Shown here: positions 57,930 through 64,000 of the stretch, in pieces
Layout of the letters: the number at the start of each line of letters is the position of its first letter
Numbering within the stretch: position 1 is the stretch's first letter
Source of the DNA: Streptomyces bathyalis
Lineage (GTDB): Bacteria; Actinomycetota; Actinomycetes; Streptomycetales; Streptomycetaceae
DNA length: 64,000 bases
Assembly (NCBI RefSeq): GCF_015910445.1
Contig: NZ_CP048882.1
Location: 4,650,001 to 4,714,000, forward strand
Direction: 5' to 3'
Made by a program: the position numbers and the translations under genes
Notes under the pieces: generated by a model
What the model was told of the DNA's origin: nothing
Seen by the model: only the letters and a program-made list of their open reading frames with translations
Database searches by the model: none

Positions 57930-58103
57930 AATAGACGTTCGATATTATGGGGTTCCTGCTGAACACCCGGTGTGCGCCCGGGAATTGAACAGGCGCAGTT
58001 CCGCGCTCAACGGCGGTGAAAAACATGGAGAGATCAGCCGGATCATGCGACACACCGCCGTATTTGGCAGATGGGTGCGGCTCAACCCCTCTACCGTGTG
58101 AGG

Positions 58104-59315
58104 GTGAACAGCAGTGGCCTCATCTACGCAGTCATCGTCGGGGCCTGGGCTGCCTACTTGGTGCCGATGTGGCTCCGCAGGCAGGACGAGCTGAACGAAT
58201 CCCGTCCGACGGAACGCTTCAGCACCGCCATCCGTCTGCTGTCAGGCAAGGCGGCAATGGAAAGGCGCTACGCGAGGGAGAACGAGCGCCGCGACGGTGA
58301 AGTCCCCGAGGAACACGGCGATCTCTCGGCCCCCGGCACCGCCCCCGAGAACGCGGACGGCGCGGACGATTCCGCCGACGTCGACGAGTCGGTCGACGTA
58401 CGTGCCTACGCCGACCCAAAGACCATGGTGGGCCAGGGCGTTACGAGCGTTCCCACGGAGGTGCTCGGCGCCTCCGGCTCCGAGGCCGCGGATGCCGATG
58501 GTGCGAACGCCGACGGCCGGAGCGAGAACGGCCACAGCTCCTCCGAGCGGGACGGCGTCGAACGAGGCAAGGCGGAACGCGACAAGGCCCGGCAGAAGAG
58601 CAAGCGCGCCAAGGTGCTCGCCCGGCGCCGGCGCACCACGATGGTTCTCTTCCTCGCCTTCACCGCGGGCACGATCGTCGCTGCCGTCGGCGGCCTCGCC
58701 TTCCTGTGGGCCCCGGCGGCGCCCGGGCTGCTGCTGAGCACGTACATCGTCCATCTGCGCGTGCAGGAACGCCGGCGCTTCGCCGCCGTCATGGACAAGC
58801 GCCGAGCGAAGGCCGCGGCGAAGGAGAAGCGCGCCCGGAAGGCGGCGGATGAGGCGAAGGCCGGCGCGGGCGTCCCCACCGAGGCTCACCCCGGCCCCTC
58901 CGGGCAGGCTCCGGCGGCCGAGCCCGGCGCGACCGCGCACGAGGAGGAGCCCGCGGCGGCGGGCCGGCGCGCGCTCGTGGAGCAGACGGACCACGCGGAG
59001 TGGGTCGACCAGCAGCGCGACGGCGGCCGCGAGCCCGCAGAGGGCTGGGACCCCGTGCCGGTGCCGCTCCCGACGTACGTCAGCGCGCCCGTCGCCCCGC
59101 GCAGCACGCGTGGCGTGGACCTGGAGGCCCCCGGCACATGGAGCTCCGCGCGCTCCAGCAGCGCGAGCAGCGAGCCCCCGGCCACCTCCTCCGGGTCCGG
59201 CCAGGAGCAGGACGAGGAGCACGGCAGCGGGGCACGTCGCGGACGTGGACGGCGCCAGACGCCGCTCTTCGACCAGTACGAGGAAGACGGCCGCCCGCGC
59301 GCCGCCAACGAGTGA
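58104..59315 (+). CDS. sepX: SepX/GlpR membrane protein of the division machinery
   Basis: A 403-residue protein with an N-terminal membrane helix (SGLIYAVIVGAWAAYLVPMWLRR), a conserved ERFSTAIRLL segment, a long acidic low-complexity linker, two adjacent hydrophobic helices (TTMVLFLAFTAGTIVAAVGGL, LWAPAAPGLLLSTYIVHLRV), a basic helix and a disordered tail ending TPLFDQYEEDGRPRAANE. This matches SepX of Streptomyces and GlpR of corynebacteria, which bind gephyrin-like Glp and help place FtsZ. The GTG start at 58104 is chosen (another GTG two codons earlier). It is linked to glp upstream. Confidence 0.82.
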   Translation: MNSSGLIYAVIVGAWAAYLVPMWLRRQDELNESRPTERFSTAIRLLSGKAAMERRYARENERRDGEVPEEHGDLSAPGTAPENADGADDSADVDESVDVRAYADPKTMVGQGVTSVPTEVLGASGSEAADADGANADGRSENGHSSSERDGVERGKAERDKARQKSKRAKVLARRRRTTMVLFLAFTAGTIVAAVGGLAFLWAPAAPGLLLSTYIVHLRVQERRRFAAVMDKRRAKAAAKEKRARKAADEAKAGAGVPTEAHPGPSGQAPAAEPGATAHEEEPAAAGRRALVEQTDHAEWVDQQRDGGREPAEGWDPVPVPLPTYVSAPVAPRSTRGVDLEAPGTWSSARSSSASSEPPATSSGSGQEQDEEHGSGARRGRGRRQTPLFDQYEEDGRPRAANE

Positions 59316-59457
59316 CCCCCGGTGACCGGCACCGGCCCTCCGCCGGGCCCGGCACCGGGGCTCTGGGCCTGGTGAGAGAGCCGGGATGTGCGGTGACCAG
59401 CGCCGGAACCGATTAACGCCTGGCGCGGCCGGGATGCTAAGGTTTCATCCGTCGCAA

Positions 59458-59531
59458 GGGCCTGTGGCGCAGTCCGGTAGCGCATCTCGTTCGCAACGAG
59501 AGGGTCAGGGGTTCAAATCCCCTCAGGTCCA
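59458..59531 (+). tRNA. tRNA-Ala(CGC)
   Basis: A 74-base cloverleaf: acceptor GGGCCTG pairing with CAGGTCC, the D arm GGCGC-AGTCCGGTA-GCGC, anticodon arm TCTCG-TTCGCAA-CGAGA with anticodon CGC, T arm AGGGG-TTCAAAT-CCCCT, discriminator A. The following bases are CCT, so CCA is not encoded. It reads GCG codons. Confidence 0.93.
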
Positions 59532-59556
59532 CCTAACTCAGAGCAGCACCAGGTCG

Positions 59557-59588
59557 AGCCCCCGTCGGAGAGATCCAGCGGGGGCTTT
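59557..59588 (+). terminator. tRNA-Ala terminator
   Basis: Stem AGCCCCCG / CGGGGGCT with a 14-base loop followed by TT, about 25 bases past the tRNA. Confidence 0.75.
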
Positions 59589-59700
59589 GTCGTGCCGTAC
59601 AGCAGCGATGTACAGCAACTACGGTGACCGTCCTTGATCGCGCTGGACGGTCCGCCGAGATGCAGTTCAGGGGCTTGCGCCGACGGCCCGGTGGCCGGCA

Positions 59701-60441
59701 TCAGACCGGTTTGCGCCATACGGAGATGTGCTTCGTGGAGTCCTGCGTGAACGGTGCCCCGTCCCAGTCCTCGATGCGACGTTCCAGCTCGAGCCCGGCG
59801 ATCCGTGCCATCAGGTCGAGCTCTGCCGGCCAGGCGTAGCGGTGCCGGGAGCTGTCGCGGCGGTAGCGACCGTCGTCGCCGTCGCGGGTGAAGTGGTGGG
59901 AGACAAGAGTCTGCTCCACCAGGTCGAAGGTGTCGAAGCCGAGATGCTGCTCAGAGACGTCGAACGGCACCGCGACCTGGCCGGGCGGCAAGAACCGCAA
60001 CGGTGGCACGCCCAGCTCGATGACGAATCGACCCCCGGGCCTCAGATGACGGGCCGCGTTGCGGAAACACTCGACCTGCTCGTCCTGGGTGAGCAAGTTC
60101 GTGATGGTGTTGTAGACGACATAGACCAGGCTGAACTCGCCGGAGACCACGGTGGTTGCCATGTCCCCGATGGCAACCGGGAGCGTGTCCTCGTCGACCT
60201 TGCGCCGCAGAACCGCTGCCATGTGCTCGGACAGTTCGATACCGACCACCGGCACGCCACGTTCCCGGAGCGGGACCCCCACTCGTCCGGTTCCGATGGC
60301 GAACTCCAGCGCCCGGCCCGTTCCGGCGAGTTCGGCGAGGAAGGCGAGAGCCGGTCCGAGTACGTCGGCCGACGACCTCTCAGCCTCCGCGGCGTCGTAG
60401 CGCTCAGCGGTCTCACGGGTCCACAGCTCACTGCTCGTCAC
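59701..60441 (-). CDS. Class I SAM-dependent methyltransferase
   Basis: A 246-residue methyltransferase. Motif I is LEFAIGTGRVGVPL, motif post-I is VVGIELSEHM, followed by MATTVVSGEFSLVYVVYNTITNLLTQDEQVECFRNAARHLRPGGRFVIELG, the usual core. Substrate unknown. It is the first gene right of tRNA-Ala and points toward it. Nothing in the sequence ties it firmly to the racemase operon upstream. Confidence 0.85.
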   Translation of the reverse strand: MTSSELWTRETAERYDAAEAERSSADVLGPALAFLAELAGTGRALEFAIGTGRVGVPLRERGVPVVGIELSEHMAAVLRRKVDEDTLPVAIGDMATTVVSGEFSLVYVVYNTITNLLTQDEQVECFRNAARHLRPGGRFVIELGVPPLRFLPPGQVAVPFDVSEQHLGFDTFDLVEQTLVSHHFTRDGDDGRYRRDSSRHRYAWPAELDLMARIAGLELERRIEDWDGAPFTQDSTKHISVWRKPV

Positions 60442-60680: not shown

Positions 60681-61814
60681 TCACGAAGGCGCGAGGTCGT
60701 TGTGGCCCGTGTGGTGGCGGGGGAGGCGGGATCGGCAGCCGAAGCCGGTGACGATGTCGTAGCTGACGGTGCCGAGGGTCGCGGCCCACGCGTCGGCGGT
60801 GGGGGCGTCGTCCCGGCCGTCGCCGAGGACGGTGACGACATCCCCGGCGGCGACGGGCAGGTCGCCGCAGTCGACGACGCACTGGTCCATGGAGATCCGG
60901 CCGGCGATCGGTCTGGGGACGCCGTGGACCAGGACCCGGCCCGCGGTGCCTGCCGCGCGGGGAAGGCCGTCGCCGTAGCCGAGGGGCACCACGGCGAGGG
61001 TGGCGGGGCGGTCGGTGGTGTAGTCGTGGGCGTAGGAGACGCCGCAGCCGGCCGGTACCCGCTTGGTCATCAGCACCCGGGCCCGGACGGTCATGGCCGG
61101 GCGTAGGCCGAAGTCGCGGCCCGGCATGGGCGGCAGGCCGTAGACGGCGGAGCCGACGCGGACGAGGTCGAGGTGCGTGGCGGGGGCGGCGAGGGCCGCG
61201 GCGGAGTTGGCTATGTGGCGCAGCGGGGGGTGGAGGCCGACCGACCGCAGGTCCTCCAGGGCCTCGGCGAAGAGGCTCAACTGCCGTACGCAGACAGGGT
61301 CTTCGGGGCGGTCCGTGTGCACCAGGTGGCTCCATGCCCCGACCGTCTCGACCAGGCCGTCCGCCTGGGTCTTCGCGGTGGCCTCCGCGAGCGTGAGCCA
61401 GTGCTCGGGCCTTGCGCCGCCGCGGCAAAGGCCGGTGTCGGCCTTGAGGTGCACGGCGGCAGGCCGGCCCGCGATGCGGGCGGCGGCACGTACCTCGGCC
61501 AGTTCGTCGAGGGAGGATACGGACAGCTCGACGCCGGCGGCCACGGCCTCGGCCCGTGGCATCCCGGGCCCCACCAGCCAGGCCAGGACAGGGGCCGTGA
61601 ACCCTGCCGTCCGCAGGCTCATGGCCTCCGCGAGGGTGGCGACGCCGAGCCGGTCGGCGCCCGCCTCGAGTGCGGCGCGGGCGACCTCCGGTGATCCGTG
61701 GCCGTAGGCGTCGGCCTTGACGACGGCCATCACCTGGGACGTGGTGGCGGCCCTGACCCGGGTGACGTTGTGCCGTACGGCGTCGAGGTCGACCCGTATC
61801 TCCGCCTGCCACAT
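60681..61814 (-). CDS. Alanine racemase
   Basis: A 377-residue PLP enzyme. The N-terminal barrel has the PLP Lys in VMAVVKADAYGHG near residue 35; HLKADTGLCRGG, HIANSAAAL, VRVGSAVYGLPP and the C-terminal catalytic Tyr region GVSYAHDYTTDRPATLAVVPLGYGDGLPR with ISMDQCVVD follow. It racemises L-alanine, or a similar amino acid such as serine. It is last in an operon with rhodanese and ATP-grasp genes (TGATG coupling), so it is probably a dedicated biosynthetic or resistance copy rather than the housekeeping racemase. The start at 61814 gives MWQAEIR. Confidence 0.92.
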   Translation of the reverse strand: MWQAEIRVDLDAVRHNVTRVRAATTSQVMAVVKADAYGHGSPEVARAALEAGADRLGVATLAEAMSLRTAGFTAPVLAWLVGPGMPRAEAVAAGVELSVSSLDELAEVRAAARIAGRPAAVHLKADTGLCRGGARPEHWLTLAEATAKTQADGLVETVGAWSHLVHTDRPEDPVCVRQLSLFAEALEDLRSVGLHPPLRHIANSAAALAAPATHLDLVRVGSAVYGLPPMPGRDFGLRPAMTVRARVLMTKRVPAGCGVSYAHDYTTDRPATLAVVPLGYGDGLPRAAGTAGRVLVHGVPRPIAGRISMDQCVVDCGDLPVAAGDVVTVLGDGRDDAPTADAWAATLGTVSYDIVTGFGCRSRLPRHHTGHNDLAPS

Positions 61815-62239
61815 CACTGCGCGGGGGCCGGGGAAGGCGCGCAGGCCGTTTCGTAGCCGGCGCGCTGCCAGTACTCGAGTCCGCCGATCATCTCCTTGAC
61901 CCGGAAGCCGTGTTCGGCCAGCCGGGCCGCCGCGCGGGTGCCGGCGTTGCACCCGGGCCCCCAGCCGTACGTGACGTACACGGTGTCCTTCGGCAGTGCG
62001 GCCAGAGCGGCGTCAGTCATCTCCTGGTGCGCGAAGGACCGTGCGCCGGGGATGTGGCAGCGGTCGTGGTCCGTGCGGCGGCGGCTGTCGAGCAGTACGA
62101 ATCCGGCGGCCCCGGCGGCCAGGTCGCAGTGGACGTCGTAGGGGTCCGTCTCGCAGGCCAGCCTGATGTCGCGGAAGTGGCGCAGGGCGTCCCGGGGTTC
62201 GGCCGGGGGAGTGCCGAGCACTCGCGTGTTCTCGTGCAC
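61814..62239 (-). CDS. Single-domain rhodanese-like protein
   Basis: A 141-residue rhodanese domain. It has FVLLDSRRRTDHDRCHIPGARS, the active-site loop GPGCNAGTRAA with the catalytic Cys (CxxGxR), and GFRVKEMIGGLEYW. Such proteins carry persulfide sulfur to acceptors. The GTG at 62239 has GAGGAG 6 bases upstream; a GTG at 62251 would overlap the ATP-grasp stop. It couples to the racemase gene by TGATG. Unlike many rhodaneses the loop contains an extra Gly-Pro before Cys. Confidence 0.85.
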   Translation of the reverse strand: MHENTRVLGTPPAEPRDALRHFRDIRLACETDPYDVHCDLAAGAAGFVLLDSRRRTDHDRCHIPGARSFAHQEMTDAALAALPKDTVYVTYGWGPGCNAGTRAAARLAEHGFRVKEMIGGLEYWQRAGYETACAPSPAPAQ

Positions 62240-62247
62240 AGCGCTCC

Positions 62248-63501
62248 TCACTGCCGGTAGGTGACGGGCGTGTAGTGGGCGAACCGCTGGAAGTCCCGGT
62301 AGATGGCCTCGTAGTCCTTGTTCCAGACGAGGAAGGTCCCGCCGTTGTCGGACAGCGACTCGCCCTGGCCGATGACCTGGCCGGGACGCAGCTTCCAGCT
62401 CATCTCGTAGTCGCTCTCGATGTCCGGTTCGACGAGGCTCTCCACGACTCCGGCGCGCTTGGGCAGTACGCCGTCGTAGCAGTAGATCTGCTCGCCGTCG
62501 TACGGCTCGGACTCCAGGCCCGACTCGATCTCCACGGACAGATTGACCAGCGCCACGCCGTAGTTGCGCTGCATCGCCTCCACGCCGGCCATGCCCTTGA
62601 AGCGGGCGGCCACTTCGAGGAAGACCAGTTCGTCGTCGGCGGTCCGGAACAGCTCCAGATGGGAGGCGCCGTCGGGGCGGCCCAGGGCGTCAAGTGCCCG
62701 CTCGCCGAAGGCGATCATGCGGGGAACGCGGGGGTCGGAGTCGATCAGGTTGACGTCGACGTTGGTGCGGCCCTCCTGTACCTGGGTCGAGTTCACCAGG
62801 TACTCGGTGACGCCGGCGAACACCGAACTCCCGCCCTGGGAGACGATGTTGACGCTGTACATCGTCCCCTTGACGAACTCCTCGTACTCGTAGGGGCGGT
62901 GGAAGCCACCGGCCGTCGCCGCGTCGTGGTCGGCGCGGGAGGAGATCATGAAGACGCCGTCGGCGGAGTTGCCGTCGACCGGCTTCAGCACGAAGGGCAG
63001 CCCGACCTCGTCGGCGATCTTCGCGTAGTAGGCGGCCGGGTCGGCTCCGGCGGCCTCCGTGTCGTAGCGGCCGAACGCCGGGACGCGGACGCCGGCGGCC
63101 CGCACCCTCTCCTTCATCAGGCACTTGTCGCGGAACGGCAGGATGTCCTCGTAGCGAGGGCCGGACAGGCCGAACTCTCCCCGGAGTTCGGCGGCGAGGA
63201 GCAGATTGCGCTCGTCGTAGCAGAGGATCGCCAGGTCCTCGCGGGAGGTCTCCTCCAGCAGGCCGTGGATCAGTGTGCGGGCACGGTCGCGGTCGATGAG
63301 CGAGGACTCGGCGACGGTCGGATCGGGCTGGCCGCACGGCAGCACATGGATCTCGTCGAGGTACGCGCGCTGGGCGTCGGTGACGTTGTCGACGTCGTAC
63401 TCGGAGTACATCCCGATGAAACGGGCGTTCTCCGGTGCCTTGAGCAGGTCGTGGCGGAACGCGCCGGAACCGCGCGTGGAGATCATGACAACGGTCTTCA
63501 C
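62248..63501 (-). CDS. ATP-grasp ligase
   Basis: A 417-residue ATP-grasp enzyme. It has a pre-grasp domain (1-110), DKCLMKERVRAAGVRVPAFGRY, the ATP-binding loop FVLKPVDGNSADGVFMI, the EFVKGTMYSVNIV motif and metal-binding HLELF...LVFLEVAARFKGMAG. Proteins of this kind join an amino acid or other carboxylate to an amine through an acyl-phosphate. With an alanine racemase next to it, a D-amino-acid-containing dipeptide is a reasonable guess, not a demonstration. It overlaps or nearly touches the rhodanese gene and follows an MFS gene by 78 bp. Confidence 0.88.
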   Translation of the reverse strand: MKTVVMISTRGSGAFRHDLLKAPENARFIGMYSEYDVDNVTDAQRAYLDEIHVLPCGQPDPTVAESSLIDRDRARTLIHGLLEETSREDLAILCYDERNLLLAAELRGEFGLSGPRYEDILPFRDKCLMKERVRAAGVRVPAFGRYDTEAAGADPAAYYAKIADEVGLPFVLKPVDGNSADGVFMISSRADHDAATAGGFHRPYEYEEFVKGTMYSVNIVSQGGSSVFAGVTEYLVNSTQVQEGRTNVDVNLIDSDPRVPRMIAFGERALDALGRPDGASHLELFRTADDELVFLEVAARFKGMAGVEAMQRNYGVALVNLSVEIESGLESEPYDGEQIYCYDGVLPKRAGVVESLVEPDIESDYEMSWKLRPGQVIGQGESLSDNGGTFLVWNKDYEAIYRDFQRFAHYTPVTYRQ

Positions 63502-63579
63502 GGTGTCTCGCTTCGCTAGAACGGGTTGCGCTCGGGCAGGAGCCGGCGGCGGGCGGCGGGGCCCGCCGGGCCGGGAGGG

Positions 63580-64000
63580 TCAGGGGGCGGTGTTGGCGGC
63601 GGGCTCGGTCGGCGCCGCCTTGTCCGCCTGGTCCGGGTCTGCGTCGTCCACGGGGCCCGCGGCGGGGCGGGCGATCATCCGCTCCAGCCACATGAGCATC
63701 GGCACGGCGACCGCGCTGAGCGCGATCAGGAACATCAGCGGCAGCACCGCCTGGCGTGCCAGCAGGAAGGTGAAGATCGCCGGGGCCGTCACCTGCCCGA
63801 ACGTCCAGGACAGCTGGTAGAGCGCCAGATAGCGGCCGCGTACGTGCTCGGGGGCCAGGTCGACGCTGAGCTGGTCGCCCGGTGCGGCCGAGACCGTCTC
63901 GCCCACCGACAGCACGATCATCGCCAGGAACAGTCCCGGCACCACGGCCCACACCGGAGCGATGTCCATCAGCGCGAACAGGGCGAACGCCAGCACGTTG
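63580..64000 (-). CDS. MFS transporter, C-terminal part (runs off the window)
   Basis: The last 140 or so residues of a major facilitator transporter; the gene starts beyond the right end. Helices MLAFALFALMDIAPVW, VVPGLFLAMIVLSVGETV, YQLSWTFGQVTAPAIFTFLL and VLPLMFLIALSAVAVPMLMWLE are visible, and PEHVRGRYLALYQ is a typical central-loop motif. A Pro/Ala/Asp-rich tail ends the protein. It is the upstream gene of the ATP-grasp operon and could export its product. Confidence 0.82.
   Translation of the reverse strand, partial: NVLAFALFALMDIAPVWAVVPGLFLAMIVLSVGETVSAAPGDQLSVDLAPEHVRGRYLALYQLSWTFGQVTAPAIFTFLLARQAVLPLMFLIALSAVAVPMLMWLERMIARPAAGPVDDADPDQADKAAPTEPAANTAP

What the first reader, a model, noticed from the sequence alone, without database searches (positions are those of the whole stretch)
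60681..64000. Coupled MFS - ATP-grasp - rhodanese - alanine racemase operon
Four minus-strand genes with overlapping or near-overlapping starts combine an exporter, a peptide-bond type ligase, a sulfur carrier and a D-amino-acid maker. I know of no named pathway with this exact set. Inference: it could make a small D-alanine-containing, possibly sulfur-bearing product, or provide self-resistance to a D-Ala analogue. The locus continues past the window.
Basis: inference. Interest (0 to 1): 0.6.

Follow-up and report, generated by a model that had tools for sequence, protein, structure and literature searches.

The report
Hybrid ligase-built peptide gene cluster
The four genes are the tail of a 12-gene bacterial cluster that probably builds a small, unusual peptide without the usual giant enzymes, with its own enzyme for making D-alanine; no product is known for it in the papers I could search.

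Summary
Four minus-strand genes (MFS, ATP-grasp, rhodanese, Alr) lie where stated, with two overlaps and one 78-bp gap; the Alr start is 61814, not 61952. They are the tail of a ~14-kb run of 12 genes that continues past the window to contig position 4,724,893. The run adds two ATP-grasp ligases, a PurD-like ligase, a NudC-like Nudix protein, an OCD-family enzyme, a DegT aminotransferase, a desaturase-like protein and a BesD-family oxygenase with HxD in place of the halogenases' HxG. Twelve other actinomycete loci carry the core (BesD-like, desaturase, PurD-like, this ATP-grasp). Alr is a dedicated extra copy: the host has another alr elsewhere, and the cluster Alrs (3 of 13 clusters) form their own clade. 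The cluster is a mosaic: the oxygenase pair follows one lineage, the ligase/exporter set another, with DegT and OCD between them. Best explanation: an NRPS-free, ATP-grasp-assembled small peptide with an oxidised amino acid. D-alanine as a building block is slightly favoured over Alr as self-resistance. A sulfur-bearing product is not supported.

The parts
60681..61814 (-). alr: PLP alanine racemase, 377 aa, dedicated extra copy
   Evidence: TIGR00492 289.4 bits vs cut-off 168; start corrected; 49% identical to the host's other Alr
61814..62251 (-). rhodanese-domain protein, 145 aa, loop cysteine kept (CNAGT)
   Evidence: PF00581 3.2e-10; Cys in 11 of 11 loci printed; a twelfth, L041, was not printed
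62248..63501 (-). AGr1: ATP-grasp ligase, 417 aa
   Evidence: PF13535 1.7e-7, PF02655 6.5e-7; model pLDDT 83.5 matches RizA, BL00235, YwfE/BacD first; 58-70% identical in 12 related clusters
63580..64000 (-). MFS transporter, 445 aa; 3' part inside the window, whole gene 63580-64917 in window numbering
   Evidence: PF07690 6.6e-38; gene extent

Best explanation
The four genes are the 3' part of a biosynthetic gene cluster for a small peptide-like metabolite assembled by stand-alone ATP-grasp ligases, without NRPS modules. Proposed order of events. (1) A small, probably basic amino acid is oxidised by a BesD-family Fe/2OG enzyme of hydroxylase type and by a membrane di-iron desaturase-like enzyme; terminal amine chemistry comes from an EctB-like transaminase in most relatives and perhaps from DegT/OCD here. 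(2) Three ATP-grasp ligases and a PurD-derived ligase form the amide bonds. (3) Alr supplies D-alanine (or another D-amino acid) to one of the ligases, in this sub-family only. (4) The MFS protein exports the product. Shown: gene content, overlapping genes, conservation, motifs, a separate Alr clade. Inferred: translational coupling, substrates, reaction order, the D-Ala unit and export of the product.
For: Gene layout with 1-4 bp overlaps; families; BesD-like, desaturase, PurD-like and AGr1 in 13 of 13 clusters, rhodanese 12, AGr3 12, EctB-like 11, AGr2, Nudix and own-type MFS 9 each. HGWHWDD in 13 of 13 BesD-like proteins, against HGWHWGD in the halogenases HalB and BesD. AGr1 fold closest to L-amino acid ligases. 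PurD-like proteins lack the host PurD's GPEAPL in 13 of 13, and its REHA reads RGHA or RGHG, while N-x-R-x-GD-x-E is kept. An extra Alr in 3 of 3 genomes with a cluster Alr, a single alr over cut-off in the 2 others tested; the cluster Alrs form one clade, 100/100.
Against: No product, no expression data. AGr1 matches ATP-grasp models only weakly by sequence. Substrates of the BesD-like, desaturase and EctB-like enzymes are family-level guesses. Nudix and rhodanese have no clear role, and the own Nudix box has Asp (GFVEVGD) where the other seven printed have Glu. EctB-like is missing here and in the stretch held of L042, so the building-block route cannot be identical in all clusters. Alr is absent from 10 of 13 clusters, so it cannot be needed for the core product.
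Confidence: 0.6

Rival explanations
1. Same peptide cluster, but Alr is a self-resistance copy: the product or an intermediate inhibits alanine racemase and the dedicated Alr is a less sensitive form that travels with the cluster.
For: Separate, divergent clade rather than a copy of the host's alr (49% identity; host-pair clade rejected, p-AU 3.9e-72); last gene after MFS, AGr1 and rhodanese in 3 of 3; extra copy in 3 of 3 genomes. The own copy differs near recalled catalytic positions (LCRGG and SYDIV where the other three aligned read LGRGG and SYE).
Against: 10 of 13 clusters lack it, so the common product would have to spare Alr; the catalytic residues themselves, as recalled, look unchanged in the alignment.
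Confidence: 0.3
2. The cluster makes a metallophore or other non-antibiotic amino-acid conjugate; Alr, Nudix and rhodanese are accessory metabolic genes.
For: Hydroxylated amino acids and ATP-grasp ligation would suit a chelator (inference); distant relatives of the desaturase lie beside methylaspartate mutase E in 6 of 7 loci opened (grp2, one member checked by Pfam).
Against: No siderophore receptor, binding protein, NIS synthetase or hydroxamate-forming enzyme matched among the 15 proteins scanned.
Confidence: 0.15
3. The rhodanese is a sulfur carrier and the product carries sulfur.
For: Rhodanese in 12 of 13 clusters with the loop cysteine in 11 of 11 printed.
Against: No sulfur-activating or sulfur-accepting partner over a cut-off among the 15 proteins scanned (the MoeB and cysteine-desulfurase-like matches of rhodanese and DegT lie far below theirs); L022 lacks the gene in the stretch held.
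Confidence: 0.1

Closest known systems
Bacilysin (BacD/YwfE) and related L-amino acid ligase pathways
   Same: Stand-alone ATP-grasp ligase next to an MFS transporter (pairing in bacilysin recalled); AGr1 model matches RizA, BL00235 and YwfE/BacD best; AGr2 has the LAL_C2 domain
   Different: Three such ligases plus a PurD-like one; BacD equivalog not met (AGr1 26.6, AGr2 57.2, AGr3 18.3 bits vs 850); different amino-acid chemistry
Dapdiamide cluster (DdaF; SbnA/SbnB-type building block)
   Same: ATP-grasp peptide ligase logic; an OCD-family enzyme
   Different: DdaF 32.7 (AGr2) and 21.8 (AGr3) vs 840 bits, SbnB 115.3 vs 326.9; no SbnA-type enzyme among the 15 proteins scanned
BesD/HalB lysine halogenases (beta-ethynylserine-type pathways)
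   Same: 74114-74893 belongs to PF23169, 325.6 bits; phmmer 3.4e-53 to HalB
   Different: HxD instead of HxG in 13 of 13; BesD equivalog 182.1 vs 450 bits
Negamycin-type clusters
   Same: Passages of PMC12154649 mention lysine hydroxylation and ATP-grasp for the neg cluster
   Different: Nothing described as a hydrazine-forming heme enzyme or lysine aminomutase matched among the 15 proteins scanned here

Membership tests
Alanine racemase (Alr) | TIGR00492 above its cut-off, N- and C-terminal domains complete | tested here: met
   289.4 bits vs 168; PF01168 1-220/220 and PF00842 1-122/127
Host's housekeeping alr | sole alr of the genome | tested here: not met
   PF01168 scores higher at C1:2786356, 236.9 vs 212.1 bits; full-length Alr there
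BesD lysine halogenase | HxG facial motif (no carboxylate) | tested here: not met
   HGWHWDD in 13 of 13
PurD (GAR synthetase) | curated score | tested here: met
   338.8-339.1 bits vs 288; host's own purD scores 470.4
PurD (GAR synthetase) | GPEAPL and REHA motifs of the host PurD (role in binding phosphoribosylamine recalled) | tested here: not met
   GPEAPL absent in 13 of 13; REHA becomes RGHA or RGHG
Bacilysin-type L-amino acid ligase pathway | ATP-grasp ligase of L-amino acid ligase fold | tested here: met
   Foldseek ranks 1-6 are RizA, BL00235, YwfE/BacD, TMq 0.69-0.75
Bacilysin-type L-amino acid ligase pathway | alanine-anticapsin ligase equivalog | tested here: not met
   26.6 (AGr1), 57.2 (AGr2), 18.3 (AGr3) vs 850 bits
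Dapdiamide/SbnB | SbnB and DdaF equivalogs | tested here: not met
   115.3 vs 326.9; 32.7 vs 840
D-cycloserine cluster (dcs) | its synthase, racemase and arginase-like genes | not tested
   gene list recalled only; not searched for
Sulfurtransferase (rhodanese) | active-loop cysteine | tested here: met
   CN[AG]GT in 11 of 11 printed
Sulfurtransferase (rhodanese) | sulfur transfer activity | not testable with these tools
   needs an assay
NudC NAD diphosphatase | curated score | tested here: met
   195.8 bits vs 158; host has another at C1:2384226, 240.5 bits

The most novel reading that the evidence does not exclude
An uncharacterised family of NRPS-free peptides in actinomycetes. A purine-pathway ligase (PurD) has been turned into a peptide ligase, an amino acid is oxidised in tandem by a BesD-type hydroxylase and a membrane di-iron enzyme, and sub-families gain D-alanine chemistry by swapping gene modules.
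Probability: 0.4. Interest if true: 0.68.

Novelty: new variant of a known kind. Interest (0 to 1): 0.52.

Why it matters
If right, this is a conserved but, as far as I could search, uncharacterised cluster family with an unusual enzyme set. A PurD descendant lacking two motifs of the host's PurD, a BesD relative predicted to hydroxylate instead of chlorinate, and a desaturase-like protein with no PDB sequence match at E <= 1 would act on the same small molecule. The three clusters with a dedicated alanine racemase make a testable point: either a D-amino acid is built in, or alanine racemase is the target. The natural module swap in this strain gives a direct comparison of building-block genes against assembly genes.

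Tried and rejected
Tried without result. A DNA search of AGr1 in 20 near relatives gave matches in 15, all short (124 bases or fewer), plus the own gene. PurD-like at E <= 1e-120 in 396 genomes of the phylum found only the own genome. Of 122 plasmid records matching AGr1, none reached 60% identity; the ten listed were 27-35%. Three of their neighbourhoods were opened: by annotated names none looks like this cluster, though the Burkholderia one pairs its ATP-grasp gene with a TauD-type dioxygenase and an aminotransferase, and the third has no annotation. The AlphaFold model of the L020 desaturase had pLDDT 43.6 and was not used. No sigma-70-like promoter and no terminator-like site in L008 9400-16000, i.e. 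window numbering 59400-66000; the start of the cluster was not scanned. No other match longer than 12 bases to window 59401-59700, which holds the tRNA-Ala, in the 34-kb region, so no attachment-site duplication seen. The tRNA scan inside one search printed nothing; the tRNA was placed in the relatives by blastn.

Considered and rejected or set aside. Halogenase: HxD in 13 of 13. Housekeeping alr. NAD-derived scaffold as in altemicidin, suggested by the Nudix protein: only a paper listing was seen and no SbzP-like enzyme was sought, so this is set aside, not tested. Methyltransferase 59701-60441 as part of the cluster: 239 bp away and not found at E <= 1e-30 in the 12 related stretches. Prumycin and negamycin as products: memory leads; none of the 15 papers shown of 110 holds the word prumycin.

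Literature. Ten paper searches, of which eight bear on this cluster family. Among the papers listed I saw none that describes this gene set, but two lists were cut (15 of 34, 10 of 21). Listings and starts of abstracts were seen, plus passages of PMC8473136, PMC6804068 and PMC12154649; no paper was read whole. The library holds open-licence papers only.
Full report
Observation. In the window, four minus-strand genes lie at 60681-64000: MFS (63580 to beyond the window), ATP-grasp 'AGr1' (62248-63501), rhodanese (61814-62251) and alanine racemase. AGr1 and rhodanese overlap by 4 bases. The long Alr frame starts at 61952, but the Alr domain begins at MWQAEI, whose ATG at 61814 overlaps the rhodanese stop by one base (TGATG); the Alrs of two related loci align from the same residues. 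MFS and AGr1 are separated by 78 bp.

Extent. The window is contig C1:4650001-4714000 of a 7.38-Mb genome. The same strand continues through ATP-grasp AGr2 (64921-66222, with LAL_C2), a NudC-like Nudix protein (66256-67299), a PurD-like ligase (67420-68763), ATP-grasp AGr3 (68760-70049), an OCD-family enzyme (70046-71134) and a DegT aminotransferase (71139-72566). After a 391-bp gap come a desaturase-like protein (72958-74151) and a BesD-family protein (74114-74893), all in window numbering. Upstream lie an allantoinase-like gene (name recalled, not scanned), an NCS1 permease and a GntR regulator; downstream a methyltransferase (239 bp away) and tRNA-Ala at 59458-59533.

Relatives. A pattern-based scan of one genome for each of 84,980 species with AGr1 gave 9 loci; 8 hold the core (L020-L027) and the ninth, Vibrio ouci at 33%, showed no other protein of the 15 tried. 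In Streptomyces, 9 of 392 genomes have AGr1 at E <= 1e-60: the own genome, six others with the core (two of them, G054 and G312, at the same coordinates as L026 and L027), and two (L043, L044) with a 52-53% paralogue in a different neighbourhood. That makes 13 distinct core clusters with the own one. Presence among the 13, in the stretches held: BesD-like, desaturase, PurD-like and AGr1 13; rhodanese 12; AGr3 12; EctB-like 11; AGr2 9; Nudix 9; own-type MFS 9; Alr 3; DegT+OCD 1. Some stretches end at contig ends, so absences are provisional. MFS, AGr1, rhodanese and Alr in a row occur in 3 of 13 (own, L020, L021).

Alr. The genome has a second, better-scoring alr at C1:2786356, beside genes I recognise as nnrE/nnrD-like (recalled). 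Cluster and host Alr are 49% identical. L020's genome has 2 alr genes over the cut-off and L021's has 3, each counting the cluster copy; the genomes of L022 and L023, whose clusters lack Alr, have 1 each (the other eight related genomes were not tested). Against six other Alrs of these five genomes, the three cluster Alrs form one clade (100/100), and joining the host's two Alrs is rejected (p-AU 3.9e-72; two cluster sequences entered twice under different locus ids, and L111 has a long branch). The same genome also holds separate, better-scoring purD, nudC and ectB genes.

Enzyme readings. The BesD-like proteins read HGWHWDD in 13 of 13, while the solved halogenases HalB and BesD read HGWHWGD in the alignments shown. 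That replacement restores the carboxylate ligand, and hydroxylation is the expected outcome (established knowledge of the family, recalled). The PurD-like proteins: the own one passes the purD cut-off (339.1 vs 288 bits). Against the host's PurD all 13 lack GPEAPL, and REHA reads RGHA or RGHG, while the N-x-R-x-GD-x-E stretch is kept; a changed amine substrate is my inference. The EctB-like protein of L021 scores 550.5 against an equivalog cut-off of 552.2 and passes the wider diaminobutyrate transaminase subfamily, 581.8 vs 438. The desaturase-like proteins keep their histidine clusters in the eight aligned (HxxxH, HxxHH, HxxHH); the own one has no PDB match at E <= 1. The AGr1 model (pLDDT 83.5, pTM 0.82) matches RizA, BL00235 and YwfE/BacD first (TMq 0.69-0.75).

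Mosaic. The BesD-like plus desaturase tree puts the own cluster with four Streptomyces clusters, L039-L042 (100/99); grouping it with L020+L021 is rejected (p-AU 9.3e-74). The AGr3+AGr2+Nudix+MFS tree puts it with L020+L021 (99); grouping it with L039-L042 is rejected (p-AU 1.7e-7), though four rows there are only about a quarter filled and L025 sits on a long branch. AGr1+PurD-like gives own with L020-L022 (97/96), with the alternative at p-AU 0.047, which is marginal. The groups were named after seeing identities, so the p-values are optimistic. In the own cluster DegT and OCD lie between the two modules (between desaturase and AGr3). The EctB-like gene, which in relatives usually follows the PurD-like gene, is missing from the own cluster. 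L042 also lacks EctB within its stretch, without DegT/OCD.

Mechanism. I commit to an NRPS-free, ATP-grasp-assembled small peptide: oxidised amino acid, several amide bonds by separate ligases, export by MFS. For Alr I slightly favour supply of a D-amino acid over self-resistance: its start overlaps the rhodanese stop and it sits in the clade of the ligase/exporter module, but both readings predict that. Sulfur incorporation lacks any partner enzyme among the 15 proteins scanned. Nudix and rhodanese remain unexplained; in the own Nudix box Asp stands where Glu stands in the other seven printed, and the ninth (L026) did not fit the pattern used.

Context. More distant desaturases (29-37% identity) in 20 further Streptomyces genomes (27 of 392 in all) lie, in 6 of the 7 loci opened, beside a protein group of which one member is methylaspartate mutase E by Pfam; proteins resembling AGr1 or AGr2 lie in 4 of those 7. 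So this oxygenase family recurs beside amino-acid-modifying and ligating enzymes.

Literature. No paper listed described this gene set; the searches, their cut lists and what was seen are given under Tried and rejected. The claim of novelty is limited to that library. I rate it a new variant of a known kind: ATP-grasp peptide clusters are known, but this combination fails the equivalog tests of those I could test.

On holding the report against the calls I mended the number of proteins scanned (15), the place of the missing EctB-like gene, the cut paper lists, the plasmid identities and the limits of the promoter scan. The odds did not need changing.

Noticed in passing
window 59458-59533: tRNA-Ala (CGC) directly downstream of the cluster, after a gene conserved in Streptomyces relatives (58071-59315). 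In 5 of 5 relatives opened the same gene and a 92-95% identical tRNA are present, but none of the cluster genes is in the 11-12 kb held; no attachment-site repeat seen.
   Followed up: partly
L043 9794-13582, L044 9758-13549: AGr1 paralogues (52-53%) in another small cluster. Both loci have an MFS10-type transporter; in L044 there are an asparagine-synthetase-A-like protein (220 vs cut-off 322) and a CobD-like PLP enzyme (210.7 vs 290.55), both below their cut-offs.
   Followed up: partly
L026 1028-3384: Between rhodanese and Nudix lie an asparagine synthetase A gene (429.5 bits vs cut-off 368) and a gene with only weak FMN-oxidoreductase matches, not seen in the other core clusters.
   Followed up: no
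L081-L087: Distant relatives of the cluster desaturase beside a group containing methylaspartate mutase E in 6 of 7 loci; L086 also has a PLP decarboxylase and a class III aminotransferase.
   Followed up: partly
window numbering 75000-75500 (L009 11000-11500): GC is 0.60 in this 500-bp step just upstream of the cluster's first gene, against 0.63-0.72 in the other eleven steps from 74000 to 80000; may hold the promoter or mark a junction.
   Followed up: no
L024, L025, L027: A long regulator (SARP-type, label recalled) lies divergent to the cluster in 3 loci, with a 37% partial match in L022; not found in the own stretch at E <= 1e-10.
   Followed up: no
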